Shown here one piece after another: positions 20,577 to 27,286 of a DNA stretch of 64,000 nucleotides. The notes beneath the pieces were generated by a model, which did no database searches, was not told where the DNA came from, and worked only from the letters and a program-made list of their open reading frames with translations. A program made the position numbers and the translations under genes. The stretch's first letter is position 1, and each line of letters opens with the position of its first letter. Source of the stretch: a virus; the IMG/VR virus record IMGVR_UViG_3300044765_000092, positions 62,001-126,000 of that record, one strand, 5' to 3'.

Positions 20577-23500
20577 TCAATGGTTGTTGTTCATGCGGAG
20601 AGACTTGTACTGTTTCTCCAGCTCCTTGATGTTGGACAACGTGATACCGCCATCGCGCATCGTCTTGAGCAATTGAACTGCTTCAGCCTTAGTGCTGAAG
20701 AAGCGAACTACTTCGTCCTGCCCACCGCCATCGTGCCATTGCACCTTGAACGATTGAACACGGGCTGCCTTTTGGTTTGCCGATTGCCCCTTGGTTGGCA
20801 GAATGATGTAGAACACACCGTTCTCCATCAGTGGGTACACTTTGATCTTATGCGGATCGGCCGATGGTTTGATCTGTTCGCGGTAGAACAGGTTCATCTG
20901 CATCTTGGTCGCAAACCCGAATTCACGCATCTGGTTCTTCTTAGCCTTGATCGCAGTGTAGATGAACTTGAACATCTCGTTCGTCTTGCTATCGATCTCG
21001 AACCCCTTCTTTTTCCAGGTGCGGAACAGCTCGATCAGTGCAATCGGGCCTGGGATCTTGGTGTATCGGTACTCAGGGCTGGTACGGAAGCCAAAGTTTT
21101 GCAGTGCGGCCAGCACATCGTCACGACCATCAGCACGATAACGCAGGGCCAGCATGTCGTTGATGATCGCAAAGTCAAATTCAGCCGTTAACGTGTTTTC
21201 TTCCAGCACCTCAGGCTGTTCTTTGGCTGCTTTACCCTTAGCCTGCCGCTTCTTGTCCTGAGCTCCAGATTCGACCGGCACATCCAACGGCTTGTCGATC
21301 GGAATATCACCAACCATCTTCAGCAGTTGATTCCGCATGTCCTTGCTGCTGGTGGTGCTGCGTGTAATCACATAGGCTTGTAGCTTACGCACTAGCACAC
21401 GCTGACCATCACCGAGCAGAACACGAATACGCTTTGGCCCCATCACCTGAATGATTGTGCCATCGCCAAACTCAGTGTGAACAGCACGGTTGACCATCAA
21501 GGCGCGCTCGCGTTCGAGCTTGACCTTGAGTTCCTTCTGCTTATCGGTCAACGTATCATCGTCATCCGTATCGTCATCGTTATCAGCGTCGTCATCGTCA
21601 GACTCAAGCGCAGCCAAGTCCTGATGAATGTATTCGTCGTAACGGATGAGGCCCAATTGCGACGCGCCATACAGATCCATTTCTGGAACGTAGGGTACAC
21701 GACTCATCAACTTCGAACCTTGGAGCATCCCACCCTGCGGCACGGCCACAGGCTGGAGCTTATCTCCGTGTTCTTCACGGTATGCAGCATAGTCGGCGTG
21801 CAGTACCTCGTGGTACTCGCGATAACCCTGCAGATAGGGCATCAGCTCGTCGTTGAAGTCGTTGTTTGCCTGGATGCTTTCCAGACTCATGCCCACTTGT
21901 GGCAGATCCGGGAGTGTTTGGTACTGTGGATTGTCGTGCTCGTCGAACTTAGCCTTGCTGATCAGCTTGCTGACCAATCGGGCAGCCTTGGTGATGTCGA
22001 CACTCCGATTCACCAGAATCCAGTCCAAGTACACGTTGGTCCGTGTTTCCTTGCTCTTTAGCTGGGGGCGGTAGATTCGGCTGTTACCTTGTTCCAACAC
22101 GCCTGGGGTCCACACCGTTTCCATACGGATAAGACGACTCACGTGCTGGAAGTTCAGGCCTGTATCCATCGATGAACTAACGCCCACCATGATTCGCTTG
22201 GTGTCGTCAGTCTCAAACTGAACACGCGCTTCGATCTTCTCGTCGGCCGTGTAGTGAACCATCAACGGTTTGAGATCGGGTGGCGCCAGATTGTAGACCG
22301 CCTCAGCGCTAGGAATGTACTGCGTGAAGATCAGAATCTTGCCCGGCAGATTTTGCTTCAGGTGTTCGCGGCAGAGCTCAAATACCTTGGCAACCTTTGG
22401 TGACACTGCATCTTCAGTGTTCTTCAGGAACTTGGACGCATACGGGTCTTCAGCCGGCGCCGACAAGAACCGCTCCATGCGGATCATGTAAGGCTTGAGC
22501 AACTGCTCAAGCTGTTCGGCTGTAGCTTCGTCGTCACTATCCTCCATCGCCTGTTTGAGCTCTGGCTTCTTGGCCAACGCCGCCTTGATCAGCTCAGTAG
22601 TCTCTTCCAGGATGGTCTGGTACAGGATCTGTTGGTTCTCAGTCAGGTCAACCGCATAGAACTTCTCGATCGGGTCTGGCAGTAGCGCAGCCCATTCCTT
22701 GCGTTTCGCAACTGCAAACACGCAATGCTCTTTCAAGCGTTGCATGACCATGCGTTCGGTTCCTGGCTTCCAGGCGATGACCTTAGACCCGCGCATCTCG
22801 TCTGCATATTCACGCTTGAAGTTCTCGACAGTACCAAACACCGTCGGGTCAAGCAGTGCTACCTGGGACACGATGTCAACGATGGTATCGGCAATCAGAG
22901 TACCTGAGCCAACCCGCTTCATCGGAATGTCCTGCATGAACCGTGCAGCGGCGTTACGACGTGCCGACTTGAGGTTCTTGAGGTAGTGAACTTCGTCCAC
23001 GGCCACCAGATCGAACATGAACTGGCGCATGAACTCGGCGTTCTTGTAGACGATTACCGACTTGTTGCCGTAGGCCACAGGCTTGCCCCGCGCCTTGATG
23101 AAGTTAAAGTCGGATACCACCACCGTGTTGGGTGGCGCCATCTCGATCATCTTGGCGATCTTTTCTTCGCCATGCATCTTCATCGTCACGTTCGTGATCG
23201 GCAGAACGTTGAGTCGGCCTTCGGTCACAAACACCACTTCCTTGACATACTGATGCACCAGATGGCTAGGGCACAGAACGATCGGACGTTTGCAATTGCC
23301 GTTCTTGAGTTCACGCAGAATGTTCGTCAAGAAGATGATGGTCTTACCACCGCCAGCCTGAACTGCGTACATTGCAAACTTAGGACCACGACCCATCTTC
23401 TTGTCGACACGCGCTTGGTGTGGCAAGAACGACAGATCCTTCTTGATCAGCGGAATCGGCTTGATCGGTTCATCCTGGTCGATCTCGTCCTGCTTGAGGT

Positions 23501-25157
23501 AAGCACTGCGCTCAGTCTCGTCCTGGATCTTCAGAACGTGGTAGCTAGGACCATGATCGAGGAACACCTTTAGCGAGGCCATGCGCGCCAGTGTGTTAAC
23601 CACACTGTAACTCTTGTAGATCGCTTCGATATTCGTGTTGTAGACTTCAAGCGCACGTTGGACCATGCGGCCAATGAATCTAAAGGCCGGGAGACCGGTC
23701 CTCGGATGCATCTGCCACAGACGAGGACCAAAGTACCCGTTGTACTCGAACAAGTCTTCACGCTGACCTTTGAAACCATGAAACGCGGTCAGTGCAAACT
23801 TCATGATCTCGTCGGGTGACACAATCTTGGTCGTCCCGTTCAAGAATTTGTGCTGCTGGTCGGTCAGCACACTGTTGCCACCGATCGTGCCGTCTGACGT
23901 TTCGAACAATTCTTCGGCCGTCGGGCGTTCGTTCAGCACTTCCGGATTTGCGGCTGCCGCTGCCGCGATTGCAGCCAAGAGGGTCGAGAACTCAGGGCTC
24001 TGTACCGCCGTATTAGCTGCGGCGATAGCCGTTCCTTCGAGGAAGGAACGAATGTGGAACGCACGAACTGGAGTAGTATCCCCAAGGTCGTAGATTGACA
24101 GGTTGCCCACGCTATTGCTGTAGACGAACTTGTCGTTCAGCCAGTCTGTGAAGATAGGCAGATTGGACGGCAGCTTCTTCTGCAGCGGTATGGTCTTGAT
24201 GTCGATACCCCCATCAGCCGACGCTTGTGGCAATGGTGCCTGGAACGTGTACGAGCCGTCGTCCTGCAGACCGTAGTCCATCAGTTGCTGTTCGTACATC
24301 TGCGACTGATCAACTTCCGGTAGGAGCAGGAAGTTCTTGTCGATGTCGATGATCATACCATCGATGCCAGTTCGAGGCACGATCGGCTTCGCCTGCAGAG
24401 TGGCCTTGACTTCACCGGCAATACGCGCGATCGGTGCAATGGTCTCCGGCACATTACCGAACTCACCAAACATCGTGCCGATCCACTGGAGCAGTGTCGG
24501 GTAGAAGTTGCCCAGCTTGATTTCGGCAAACGGCGTGTTGTTCAGGTACTCGGCTTCTTTCTGGCTGATGACAAACGTTGCCCAGATCTGGACGTAGTCG
24601 TCGCCCTTGACTTCGAGTCGCAGCTCCTTGATCGCATTGCTGATCACCGTGCCGGTACGCATTGGCACTGGAATACGGGTGGCGATTGCCTTGCCTGTTT
24701 GTGGACCAGTGGCGAACAGAGACTGTTCAACCGTCTTGACCTGCTCGACCAAGGCGTTGAACATACCCGGATTTGTTGGGTCGTTCGGGAACATGCCCTT
24801 GAGCACATTGTACAAGAAGCCCGAGATCGCTAGCGGTGAACCGCTGAGACCCTGCATCGAATAGATCGGGGCATCGAACTCAAATCGCTTGCCAAGCATA
24901 TCCTTACGCAGGACACACGAACGAAGGAACACACCAAGGCGGTCCTTCTGATTCCTCATAAAGGCGGCAGCTTCTTTCTTGTCGATGTCTTTGCCGATGT
25001 TGGCCCACGGATAAATGGAGCCAGCGATCAAGCGCGTGTAGAACTCAGGCATCGGCATACCGACCCGCCCGTTGTAGAGAGCGACGAATCCTTCTTGTGC
25101 CTTTGCCTTCTCGAGCTTGAACTGAGTGTTCGGTTTGAGATTGGAAAGAGGACGCAC
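20577..25157 (-). CDS. Giant SNF2/superfamily 2 helicase
   Basis: A 1526-residue protein with GTG start 25157 after AGGAG. The first 570 residues are a large domain of unknown function. The helicase core begins near residue 580 with LSFLPHQARVD (a Q-like motif), Walker A VQAGGGKTIIF near 600, motif II DLVAVDEVHYLKN near 720 (DEVH), motif III VGSGTLI, and the C-terminal lobe with motif V SSSMDTGLNFQHVS and motif VI LEQGNSRIYRP. An acidic stretch (DDDDADNDDDTDDDD) and about 300 further residues follow. Such phage helicases remodel replication or recombination intermediates or act on host DNA; which one applies here is unknown. Confidence 0.85.
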   Translation of the reverse strand: MRPLSNLKPNTQFKLEKAKAQEGFVALYNGRVGMPMPEFYTRLIAGSIYPWANIGKDIDKKEAAAFMRNQKDRLGVFLRSCVLRKDMLGKRFEFDAPIYSMQGLSGSPLAISGFLYNVLKGMFPNDPTNPGMFNALVEQVKTVEQSLFATGPQTGKAIATRIPVPMRTGTVISNAIKELRLEVKGDDYVQIWATFVISQKEAEYLNNTPFAEIKLGNFYPTLLQWIGTMFGEFGNVPETIAPIARIAGEVKATLQAKPIVPRTGIDGMIIDIDKNFLLLPEVDQSQMYEQQLMDYGLQDDGSYTFQAPLPQASADGGIDIKTIPLQKKLPSNLPIFTDWLNDKFVYSNSVGNLSIYDLGDTTPVRAFHIRSFLEGTAIAAANTAVQSPEFSTLLAAIAAAAAANPEVLNERPTAEELFETSDGTIGGNSVLTDQQHKFLNGTTKIVSPDEIMKFALTAFHGFKGQREDLFEYNGYFGPRLWQMHPRTGLPAFRFIGRMVQRALEVYNTNIEAIYKSYSVVNTLARMASLKVFLDHGPSYHVLKIQDETERSAYLKQDEIDQDEPIKPIPLIKKDLSFLPHQARVDKKMGRGPKFAMYAVQAGGGKTIIFLTNILRELKNGNCKRPIVLCPSHLVHQYVKEVVFVTEGRLNVLPITNVTMKMHGEEKIAKMIEMAPPNTVVVSDFNFIKARGKPVAYGNKSVIVYKNAEFMRQFMFDLVAVDEVHYLKNLKSARRNAAARFMQDIPMKRVGSGTLIADTIVDIVSQVALLDPTVFGTVENFKREYADEMRGSKVIAWKPGTERMVMQRLKEHCVFAVAKRKEWAALLPDPIEKFYAVDLTENQQILYQTILEETTELIKAALAKKPELKQAMEDSDDEATAEQLEQLLKPYMIRMERFLSAPAEDPYASKFLKNTEDAVSPKVAKVFELCREHLKQNLPGKILIFTQYIPSAEAVYNLAPPDLKPLMVHYTADEKIEARVQFETDDTKRIMVGVSSSMDTGLNFQHVSRLIRMETVWTPGVLEQGNSRIYRPQLKSKETRTNVYLDWILVNRSVDITKAARLVSKLISKAKFDEHDNPQYQTLPDLPQVGMSLESIQANNDFNDELMPYLQGYREYHEVLHADYAAYREEHGDKLQPVAVPQGGMLQGSKLMSRVPYVPEMDLYGASQLGLIRYDEYIHQDLAALESDDDDADNDDDTDDDDTLTDKQKELKVKLERERALMVNRAVHTEFGDGTIIQVMGPKRIRVLLGDGQRVLVRKLQAYVITRSTTSSKDMRNQLLKMVGDIPIDKPLDVPVESGAQDKKRQAKGKAAKEQPEVLEENTLTAEFDFAIINDMLALRYRADGRDDVLAALQNFGFRTSPEYRYTKIPGPIALIELFRTWKKKGFEIDSKTNEMFKFIYTAIKAKKNQMREFGFATKMQMNLFYREQIKPSADPHKIKVYPLMENGVFYIILPTKGQSANQKAARVQSFKVQWHDGGGQDEVVRFFSTKAEAVQLLKTMRDGGITLSNIKELEKQYKSLRMNNNH

Positions 25158-25211: not shown

Positions 25212-25256
25212 TCAGAACAGACGGTTCGTCACGTCGCGGAGACGTGCAGCACGGAT
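25212..25256 (-). pseudogene. Relict original 3' end of the gene at 26043-26828
   Basis: On the minus strand these bases encode IRAARLRDVTNRLF and a stop. The intact gene upstream ends IRAARLRDVSNRLF and a stop. Thirteen of fourteen residues match, yet twelve of the fourteen codons differ, nearly all synonymously. The simplest reading is that this is the original end of the gene, cut off when the GIY-YIG element inserted and brought its own recoded copy. It has no start signal of its own apart from an adjacent in-frame ATG at 25259. Confidence 0.85.
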
Positions 25257-26065
25257 CATATTCTTCCTTGTAGCTTGGCAATCCGTTTCTTGTTGGCTTT
25301 TGATTTTGCCATACCCTCACGAATTCTCTGTCGATGCTCGTCACTAAGTGTTCTCCCAGAAAGTGCTTTAGAGATCGCTTCACGGTGTGAGTCCGAAGCT
25401 TTTCTACCCTTCAGTGCCGCAGCAATTCGCTTGCCTGTTTCTGGTGGCCGCTTCATTCCACGGTGTTTCGCAGCGCGCTTAGCTTTTGTTTCTTCGGATT
25501 GCTTGTGCCCCATATGCGATAGAGAAAGCAACACCCTAGTATCGATTGAGGCTTTTCTGCCTTTCATCCGCTCCGATATAGCTTCACACTGTTCTGGTGT
25601 GCGTTTCTTACCACGCAGTTTAGCTACACGTTTAGCTACAACCCCAGGATCTTGTTTCTTGCCTATCTTCTGCTGTCGAAGGCGCTCTACAACTTCACGA
25701 TCAAACTTGTAGCCACTAACGCCGTCTCCACCATCTGTCAAATTTGCTAGAGGTCCTTTGTCGAGGTTTCGCCGTCCTATCTTAGCAATCCATTTGCGTT
25801 CTAATTCGAAGGCGTCAGCTTCAGTCAAGTTAGTGCGAACGAAGCGACCACGTACCTTCAAGCCAAGAGCGTGTATCTTGGCGATGATACGGGCCTTAAT
25901 GGTGTTACCATCGCTATATTTTGTGGTGAATCTACGAGCACCTCGACCTTTACCTATATAGAATGGTTCGAAGTCAAAGACCTCCGAACCATACTTATAA
26001 GTACCAGGTTTTCTAGTGTCCATCAGAACGTATACGTAGAATTCAGAAGAGTCGATTGGAGACAT
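25256..26065 (-). CDS. GIY-YIG homing endonuclease with NUMOD3 repeats
   Basis: A 269-residue protein. The catalytic domain has YVYVLMD near residue 10 and PFYIGKGRGARRF near residue 35, then an Arg/Glu pair (FELERKWIAKIG) and NLTDGGDG. The C-terminal half consists of NUMOD3-type basic repeats (ERMKGRKAS, ALKGRKASDSHREAISKAL, GRTLSDEHRQRIREG) used for DNA binding. The start ATG at 26065 lies inside the recoded tail of the host gene, and the recoding (GAT GTC for GAC GTG) is what creates it. The open frame continues upstream to 26164, inside the host gene, and that part is rejected. Confidence 0.88.
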   Translation of the reverse strand: MSPIDSSEFYVYVLMDTRKPGTYKYGSEVFDFEPFYIGKGRGARRFTTKYSDGNTIKARIIAKIHALGLKVRGRFVRTNLTEADAFELERKWIAKIGRRNLDKGPLANLTDGGDGVSGYKFDREVVERLRQQKIGKKQDPGVVAKRVAKLRGKKRTPEQCEAISERMKGRKASIDTRVLLSLSHMGHKQSEETKAKRAAKHRGMKRPPETGKRIAAALKGRKASDSHREAISKALSGRTLSDEHRQRIREGMAKSKANKKRIAKLQGRI

Positions 26066-26087
26066 CACGAAGTCTGGCTGCACGAAT
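25257..26087 (-). mobile_element. GIY-YIG element carrying a recoded 3' end of its host gene
   Basis: The element consists of a 45-base recoded copy of the host gene's end (26087-26043) joined to the endonuclease gene. It lies exactly between the upstream body of the gene and its displaced original end (25256-25212). Boundaries are inferred from the duplicated coding sequence and could be a few bases off. The arrangement lets the endonuclease destroy its target site while the host protein keeps its sequence. A similar layout is known for mitochondrial atp6 in the fungus Allomyces. Confidence 0.8.
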
Positions 26088-26828
26088 GACAGGTAACACC
26101 AATTGTTGATCGAGCCAGCGATCCACTTCCTTGCGCTTCGGTGTCCGTTTGCCCGGCACAACAATAGTGCCTGGAACCTTGATCGAATAGCCGACGACCG
26201 CGTGGTTTTCGTTCACGTAGCGGACCCACACTGTGATGTTTGGTGCCAGCACCTTGGACCAGCGATTGTCGACCCCTCGCAGGAATCGTGGGCTCGGTAC
26301 TTGATTCAACCACTTTTCAAACGTGGGGTCCTTCACCCTGTAGAGTTCGGCCCACGATTCAAAGGTCAGCCCGGTGTCACCACGCTTGTATTCACGGAAC
26401 GCCTTGCGCACACGCACACGCTGAAAGAACCCGGTCTCGTCGAAGAATTTGACGATCGTGAGTCGGGCGCTGCGCAGATACTCACGCACATAGTCGTTCT
26501 TGGCGCTGTCGGTGTCGTCCTTAAAGGGCGAAACACCTTCGGCTTCGCAACGACGCAGGAACTCAATGATCGCGTTGTGCCACGCCAAATCCAAAGAACC
26601 CCAGGCACGAAGCTGCTTCTTGAACTCCGGGTCCGAGACCATGGAGATCCACACCTTCTGTGACTGGGGACTGAATCGTTGAGGAAAGCCAGCAACACCG
26701 GGCCACCGGCTAAACTGCGAGCTCGGCACCCCGATGATCGATAGGTCTGTCAAGCTTTCGCTACCGCTGGATCCAGCGGCAGTGATCACCAGCACTCCGG
26801 TGTCGACCGCAATCTGGTTCATACTCAT
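26043..26828 (-). CDS. Unknown protein with 3' end rebuilt by a homing element
   Basis: A 261-residue protein. Start 26828 overlaps the Nudix stop as ATGA and has GGAG six bases before. The last 14 residues (IRAARLRDVSNRLF) come from the inserted GIY-YIG element, as a near-identical peptide in different codons lies just past the endonuclease. The first part has a glycine-rich segment ITAAGSSGSESLTDL with a Nudix- or UDG-like look (IIGVPSSQFSRWPGVAG, KVWISMVSDPEFKKQL), and the end is basic. No family could be assigned. Conservation of the C-terminus through the insertion suggests that end is needed. Confidence 0.65.
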   Translation of the reverse strand: MSMNQIAVDTGVLVITAAGSSGSESLTDLSIIGVPSSQFSRWPGVAGFPQRFSPQSQKVWISMVSDPEFKKQLRAWGSLDLAWHNAIIEFLRRCEAEGVSPFKDDTDSAKNDYVREYLRSARLTIVKFFDETGFFQRVRVRKAFREYKRGDTGLTFESWAELYRVKDPTFEKWLNQVPSPRFLRGVDNRWSKVLAPNITVWVRYVNENHAVVGYSIKVPGTIVVPGKRTPKRKEVDRWLDQQLVLPVIRAARLRDVSNRLF

Positions 26829-27286
26829 AGGTTGCTCCATTCCTTCATAGACTCGCGAATGGTTTCCTCGGTGTGTGGGTCGGCCAGCAGCATCTTCACC
26901 TTTGGGTGCAGTGGTTTAGGCCAATGCCCATAGTCGACCCAACGACTGGCTGTCGACTCCCAGCTGATCTTTGGCTTGTACTGAGTTGGGACCACAACCA
27001 AGTGATTGTGGTAGTGGACATCCGGGCTCTTACTGATCCAAAGGGGCTTGACACCCAAGATCCGACCACGATATCCAGTCTCTTCCCACAATTCACGATG
27101 TAGTGCCTGCGTCAGAGTCTCGCCCTCGTCGACGCCACCACCGAACGTGCCCCAAACAGCCGGCTCTTCGACCGCGTAACTTCGCAGGTCAAACAGGAAT
27201 CGATGCGTGTCTGACGACATGAGCAACGCACCTACTGCCACATGAACGCTGCCTGTACGTGCTTGCTCGATCAAAATTCGTTTCAT
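26825..27286 (-). CDS. Nudix hydrolase (second)
   Basis: A 153-residue protein with a complete Nudix box: GGVDEGETLTQALHRELWEE followed by TGYR. The N-terminal strand reads HVAVGALLMSSDTHRFLFDL and the box lies near residues 49-71, as in small MutT-like enzymes. It differs clearly from the Nudix gene at 1982-2428, so they are not recent duplicates. Metal-dependent hydrolysis of a nucleotide derivative is expected; the substrate is unknown. Confidence 0.87.
   Translation of the reverse strand: MKRILIEQARTGSVHVAVGALLMSSDTHRFLFDLRSYAVEEPAVWGTFGGGVDEGETLTQALHRELWEETGYRGRILGVKPLWISKSPDVHYHNHLVVVPTQYKPKISWESTASRWVDYGHWPKPLHPKVKMLLADPHTEETIRESMKEWSNL

What the first reader, a model, noticed from the sequence alone, without database searches (positions are those of the whole stretch)
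25212..26828. GIY-YIG element that rebuilds the end of its host gene with recoded codons
The gene at 26043-26828 ends IRAARLRDVSNRLF. Just past the endonuclease, 25256-25212 encodes IRAARLRDVTNRLF and a stop. Thirteen of fourteen residues match but twelve of fourteen codons differ, almost all synonymously (for example GAT GTC versus GAC GTG, AGA versus CGT). The copy fused to the gene therefore arrived with the endonuclease, replacing the original end, which remains as a relict. Recoding would protect the element from its own cut while keeping the protein. Recoding GAC GTG to GAT GTC also creates the ATG (26065) used to start the endonuclease. The only precedent known to me is fungal mitochondrial atp6 in Allomyces.
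Basis: partly seen in the sequence, partly recalled or inferred. Interest (0 to 1): 0.92.

Follow-up and report, generated by a model that had tools for sequence, protein, structure and literature searches.

The report
Phage homing endonuclease rebuilds gene end
A selfish DNA-cutting gene in a giant phage sits inside the tail end of another phage gene, brings its own differently spelled copy of the lost protein end, and leaves the original end stranded behind it; sister elements show that such elements insert repeatedly in other phages.

Summary
The gene at 26043-26828(-) ends IRAARLRDVSNRLF. A GIY-YIG/NUMOD3 endonuclease follows (26065-25256). Then 25256-25212 encodes IRAARLRDVTNRLF*, with 13/14 residues the same and 12/14 codons different. 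No close relative of this phage without the element exists in the collections searched. Three results still support the core reading. (1) The 14-residue stretch is the true C-terminus of a gene family found in about 40 jumbo-phage loci; none has a GIY-YIG there. (2) The relict is spelled like the phage (94th percentile, GC3 0.64), while the gene's last 24 codons (0.6th percentile) and the endonuclease (0.8th) look foreign. (3) A survey of 321 GIY-YIG ORFs found a second case (L292) whose host gene has 80 relatives. There, 75 of 75 element-free phages lack the fused end. Each of three carrier types keeps a native end as a relict (97-100% nucleotide identity to element-free phages), and the fused end travels with the endonuclease. 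Fungal mitochondrial mobile ORFs do the same (Allomyces, Glomus, Rhizopus, Mortierella); I found no phage report. Protection by recoding is plausible but untested: 12/14 changed codons is about what saturated synonymous divergence gives (P=0.11).

The parts
26043..26828 (-). Host gene (261 aa, conserved jumbo-phage protein of unknown function); its 3' end is the rebuilt one
   Evidence: Homologues in Motura, BcepSauron/Saruman and about 40 IMG/VR loci, just upstream of the SNF2-type helicase; no Pfam/PHROG/NCBIfam family; AlphaFold pLDDT 87, no PDB match at E<1e-3, homologous phage hypotheticals in BFVD
26043..26087 (-). Fused (imported) end: 14 codons IRAARLRDVSNRLF plus stop
   Evidence: Codon adaptation at the 3.5th percentile of the phage's 14-codon windows, GC3 0.36 against 0.70 for the gene body
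26088..26117 (-). Probable further imported codons (about 238-247): co-conversion upstream of the insertion point
   Evidence: Last 24 codons at the 0.6th percentile of windows; best change point codon 245, broad maximum 238-245, P=0.047. Left edge not resolved.
25256..26065 (-). GIY-YIG homing endonuclease ORF (269 aa), start overlapping the host gene by 23 bp
   Evidence: phrog_314 homing endonuclease 2.9e-19; LEM-3-like GIY-YIG and NUMOD3 motifs just under cut-off; Y12, Y36-I-G, R44, E89, N108 intact and invariant in relatives; GC3 0.41, codon usage at the 0.8th percentile of genes
25212..25256 (-). Relict: displaced native end IRAARLRDVTNRLF plus stop; its first A completes the endonuclease stop codon
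   Evidence: Codon adaptation at the 94th percentile of phage windows, GC3 0.64; sister relicts match element-free relatives at 97-100%
20577..25157 (-). Downstream SNF2-type helicase gene, the conserved neighbour
   Evidence: PF00176, phrog_21391; follows the host gene with no GIY-YIG between in all relatives examined
26825..27286 (-). Upstream NUDIX hydrolase gene (context)
   Evidence: PF00293 6.4e-15

Best explanation
A free-standing GIY-YIG homing element has inserted into the 3' end of a conserved phage gene, between the codons for V247 and I248. The element consists of a diverged copy of the gene's last codons with their stop, plus the endonuclease ORF. After insertion the gene reads into the element's copy, so the full-length protein is still made; the recipient's own last 14 codons are stranded behind the endonuclease and supply the last base of its stop codon. 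Shown here: the anatomy, the foreign composition of the fused end and the native composition of the relict. Shown in a sister element (L325/L332/L375): several insertions at the same codon, native ends left as relicts, fused ends co-travelling with the endonuclease. Inferred: the enzyme cuts the native gene end of a co-infecting phage; break repair uses homology upstream of the cut to copy in the element's end plus ORF, with the other side joined at the cut; the element-bearing gene resists cleavage because its rebuilt end differs in DNA. That last point follows from the design. Unlike an intron, this element restores an uninterrupted gene sequence across the insertion point, so the restored sequence must be diverged if an active enzyme targets it.
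For: Family C-terminus in about 40 loci, none with a GIY-YIG at this position. Codon usage: relict 94th percentile, fused end 3.5th, last 24 codons 0.6th, endonuclease 0.8th; relict minus fused difference P=0.007. Sister family: 75/75 element-free relatives have Cys where all three fused-end types have Ala; relicts match element-free phages at 0.97, 1.00 and 1.00, fused ends at no more than 0.75; fused ends form their own clade. L331 (empty) against L325 and L332 (occupied): about 99-100% identical upstream, breaking at -97/-99 nt from the gene end; the native sequence resumes at about -67 in L332. In all carriers the endonuclease stop is completed by relict sequence. The two endonucleases are related (37% over 164 aa, 1e-18). 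No group I/II intron or other RNA family in the window locus or the sister leader.
Against: No element-free close relative of this phage was found, so the empty site is not seen in this gene family. Codon evidence rests on 14-24 codons. Whether the enzyme is active, and where it cuts, is unknown. Among 321 GIY-YIG ORFs only two clear cases were found, so the layout is uncommon in this sample.
Confidence: 0.87

Rival explanations
1. The fused end is native and the downstream copy was carried in, attached to the endonuclease, from a donor in which the same gene was already split.
For: The anatomy at one locus is symmetrical; the endonuclease touches both copies.
Against: The relict is spelled like the phage and the fused end like the endonuclease. 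In the sister family the downstream copy is a native end found in element-free phages in all three types.
Confidence: 0.05
2. A simple duplication of the 3' end accompanied the insertion, and the two copies drifted apart afterwards.
For: Some GIY-YIG ORFs are flanked by near-identical direct repeats (L124).
Against: A dead copy would not drift almost only at synonymous sites (11 synonymous, 1 nonsynonymous, no stops). In the sister family the relict stays 97-100% identical to element-free phages while the fused copy is the divergent one.
Confidence: 0.03
3. The endonuclease lies in a self-splicing intron or intein; splicing joins V247 to the downstream IRAARLRDVTNRLF, and the fused end is an intron-internal alternative C-terminus.
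For: The relict could serve as an exon continuation, and group I intron endonucleases are often GIY-YIG (own knowledge).
Against: No intron RNA in Rfam even at E<=10. The ORF fills the whole insert, leaving no room for a ribozyme core. The fused end has its own stop, which excludes an intein.
Confidence: 0.04
4. Same anatomy and history, but the codon differences are only phylogenetic distance between donor and recipient phages; there is no selection for resistance. (This competes only with the protection step, not with the rest of the best explanation.)
For: 12/14 changed codons agrees with saturated synonymous divergence (P=0.11). Sister fused ends also differ in amino acids, as expected of a distant homologue.
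Against: An active enzyme would recut a restored, undiverged target; all sister fused ends share the Cys-to-Ala change at a position invariant in 75 free relatives, though they also share ancestry.
Confidence: 0.45

Closest known systems
Fungal mitochondrial mobile ORFs that replace gene C-termini (Allomyces macrogynus atp6; Glomus sp. atp6, atp9, cox2, nad3; Rhizopus atp9; Mortierella cox2), PMC3630166
   Same: An imported C-terminus and an endonuclease ORF are inserted in the gene; the native end is left downstream; nucleotide divergence is high with protein conserved. Glomus atp9 is the nearest match: GIY-YIG, 51-nt imported end, ORF at 334-1119 abutting a native end at 1120-1171.
   Different: Phage instead of organelle; here the ORF starts inside the imported end and ends on the relict's first base. 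Transcription of the hybrid was shown in Glomus, not here.
T4 free-standing GIY-YIG seg endonucleases and HNH mob endonucleases (PMC2988022)
   Same: Free-standing phage homing endonuclease; start overlaps the upstream gene (segC 20 bp, mobA 23 bp, mobC 24 bp; here 23 bp); co-conversion of flanks during homing.
   Different: The cited review, searched for these terms, describes no rebuilt gene end or relict.
Sister elements found here in IMG/VR: L325 (same element as L292/L324), L332, L375/L376
   Same: GIY-YIG/NUMOD3 endonuclease, imported end, relict that completes the endonuclease stop codon.
   Different: Different host gene (about 128 aa), about 120 nt structured leader before the ORF, fused end also diverged in amino acids.
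Integrases of phages and islands that rebuild the 3' end of a tRNA gene (own knowledge)
   Same: Same logic: insertion in a gene's 3' end is made harmless by carrying a copy of that end.
   Different: Recombinase and short att identity block there; endonuclease-driven repair and a diverged copy here.

Membership tests
GIY-YIG homing endonucleases | GIY-YIG catalytic core with conserved Tyr, Arg, Glu, Asn | tested here: met
   phrog_314 2.9e-19; residues Y12, Y36, R44, E89, N108 invariant in 8 relatives. Pfam hits just below cut-off.
GIY-YIG homing endonucleases | DNA-binding tail of NUMOD3-type repeats | tested here: met
   NUMOD3 E 0.0011, 19.3 bits against cut-off 20.4 (just under), two stretches; phrog_655/32884 over the same region
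GIY-YIG homing endonucleases | Site-specific cleavage of the element-free allele | not testable with these tools
   Needs biochemistry; site specificity inferred from same-codon insertions in the sister family
C-terminus-replacing mobile endonuclease elements (fungal mitochondrial type) | Host gene fused in frame to an imported end, native end retained downstream of the endonuclease | tested here: met
C-terminus-replacing mobile endonuclease elements (fungal mitochondrial type) | Downstream end matches close element-free relatives; fused end does not | tested here: inconclusive
   No close relative for this phage; indirect support from codon usage; met in the sister element
C-terminus-replacing mobile endonuclease elements (fungal mitochondrial type) | Hybrid gene transcribed, native end not required | not testable with these tools
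   Needs RNA
Group I intron with encoded endonuclease | Ribozyme core around the ORF | tested here: not met
   No Rfam match; the ORF occupies the insert

The most novel reading that the evidence does not exclude
Phages carry a class of intron-free, intein-free homing elements that target protein gene 3' ends and restore the protein with a cleavage-resistant copy of the end. They serve different genes through related endonucleases, move repeatedly between phages, and reshuffle gene ends as they spread.
Probability: 0.6. Interest if true: 0.75.

Novelty: new variant of a known kind. Interest (0 to 1): 0.64.

Why it matters
It shows a third way, besides introns and inteins, for an endonuclease gene to sit inside a coding sequence without harming it, here in bacterial viruses. 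It predicts which sequences the enzyme must cut and which it must spare. It also shows that phage gene 3' ends can be imported independently of the rest of the gene. The relict gives a built-in empty-site control, so enzyme, target and resistant allele can be tested directly.

Tried and rejected
Direct search for element-free close relatives: single-protein, profile and 26-base peptide-pattern scans of viral contigs, plus phages and genome contigs, gave only relatives at about 47% (helicase) and 38% (host gene) identity or below; the four peptide-pattern hits were unrelated. Intron hypothesis rejected. Other high scorers in the survey were not the same thing: L124 near-identical noncoding direct repeats, L097 tandem GIY-YIG paralogues, L161 short repeat, L202 chance or antisense similarity, L491 and L488 repeats in bacterial contigs. 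Function of the host gene by structure: no PDB match at E<1e-3. The PDB sequence hit to TAL repeats is compositional. Annotated phage records hold no match to the sister host gene.

Full report
Observation. The window is bases 62001-126000 of a 238,018-base phage contig. On the minus strand lie a NUDIX gene, the host gene (26043-26828), a GIY-YIG ORF (26065-25256), the relict (25256-25212) and a 1526-aa SNF2-type helicase. The endonuclease start overlaps the host gene by 23 bp, as in several T4 free-standing endonucleases (PMC2988022). Its stop TGA takes its last base from the relict's first codon.

Is the short repeat a real gene end? Yes. Homologues of the host gene occur in Achromobacter phage Motura, Burkholderia phages BcepSauron and BcepSaruman and about 40 IMG/VR loci found through the adjacent helicase. 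Their last residues align with both copies (for example LPIVRSIRFDFVTNRIF, MPLVRSIKYDDIPNRLF), and nearly all end there. In none does a relative of the GIY-YIG ORF lie between gene and helicase; the gap runs from 1 nt to about 630 nt with other content.

Which copy is native? Close element-free relatives would decide, but none was found in viral contigs, phages or genome contigs. Codon usage from 242 ORFs of the same genome (66,806 codons) gives an independent answer. The relict lies at the 94th percentile of all 14-codon windows and has GC3 0.64. The fused end lies at the 3.5th percentile with GC3 0.36. The last 24 codons of the gene lie at the 0.6th percentile, and the endonuclease at the 0.8th percentile of genes (GC3 0.41). 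The gene body has GC3 0.70. The relict-minus-fused difference has P=0.007. A change-point test puts the start of foreign spelling around codons 238-245 (P=0.047), a little upstream of the insertion point, as co-conversion would.

Second case and empty sites. I scored 218 GIY-YIG ORFs in 207 phage and IMG/VR loci, and 103 in bacterial contigs, for similarity between a gene end upstream and a stop-terminated peptide downstream. Besides the window one true case appeared, L292: a gene ending ELTLAIEAAISIGEKNFNMNLR, a GIY-YIG ORF, then ELMLAIEACIQIGREQFNLNLG. The last viral scan returned 80 relatives of that host gene. Of these, 75 are element-free; all have Cys at the position where every fused end has Ala. 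The carriers fall into three types: L324/L325 (the L292 element, in two contigs), L332 (endonuclease 68% identical) and L375/L376 (64%). Each keeps a relict: L325's is 97% identical to L349-L353, L332's is identical to L331's end, L375's is identical to L398's. Fused ends reach at most 75% to any free relative and form their own clade. L331 (empty), L325 and L332 are about 99-100% identical upstream until -99/-97 nt from the native gene end; native sequence resumes at about -67 in L332. The right junction lies at about the same codon in the carriers, within a short GTAAA/AAAG microhomology. In every carrier the endonuclease reads out of frame into the relict to find its stop. So the relict is native and the fused end travels with the endonuclease. 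The same anatomy in different contigs and metagenomes argues against an assembly artefact. L325 is a mosaic: its upstream matches L331 while its relict matches the L349 lineage, so recombination has also acted since or during insertion. The window and L325 endonucleases are related (37% over 164 aa).

Mechanism. Shown: anatomy, foreign fused end, native relict, and repeated same-site insertion in the sister family. Inferred: cleavage of the uninterrupted native end, repair copying the element's end plus ORF by homology upstream, and joining at the cut on the other side. The layout restores an uninterrupted gene, so an active enzyme would recut it unless the rebuilt end is diverged. This gives a reason for divergence, but the observed 12/14 codon changes are no more than saturated synonymous divergence gives (P=0.11), so deliberate recoding is not demonstrated.

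Known relatives. Fungal mitochondrial mobile ORFs do this: Allomyces atp6, four Glomus genes, Rhizopus atp9, Mortierella cox2 (PMC3630166). Glomus atp9 is the closest, with a GIY-YIG ORF abutting a 52-nt native end. Searches of the held paper library found no phage example; that library lacks most subscription journals. I therefore file it as a new variant, in phages, of a known kind.

Noticed in passing
L325:547-668, L332:3351-3471, L375:445-574: The sister elements carry about 120 nt between fused-end stop and endonuclease start with conserved nested helices (ACCCATTA/TAATGGGT, TATATTG/CAATATA) and an overlapping TGCTTATCCAC/GTGGATAAGC pairing, pseudoknot-like; no Rfam match for the L325 leader. 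Possibly a control of endonuclease translation.
   Followed up: partly
window 25259-25212: Endonuclease stop and an ATG overlap as ATGA; the ATG opens a 15-codon ORF (M-IRAARLRDVTNRLF), so the relict could be translated by reinitiation.
   Followed up: no
L491 (Serpentinimonas barnesii): Repeats flanking a GIY-YIG ORF encode, on the opposite strand, two similar protein starts (MVRRVTGPWNAAALPEIMAG / MARRETGPWNAAAMPEIMAG): a possible N-terminal counterpart.
   Followed up: no
L124:1240-1300 and 2115-2165: Nearly identical direct repeats of about 30 nt flank a GIY-YIG ORF, noncoding: resembles a target-site duplication.
   Followed up: partly
window 26043-26828 and L018-L069: The host gene is a well-folded (pLDDT 87) protein of unknown function, consistently next to a SNF2-type helicase in jumbo phages, with no PDB match.
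   Followed up: partly
L059 and L067: The helicase homologue spans about 5950-6230 nt instead of about 4600, suggesting an insertion (intron, intein or extra domain) inside it.
   Followed up: no
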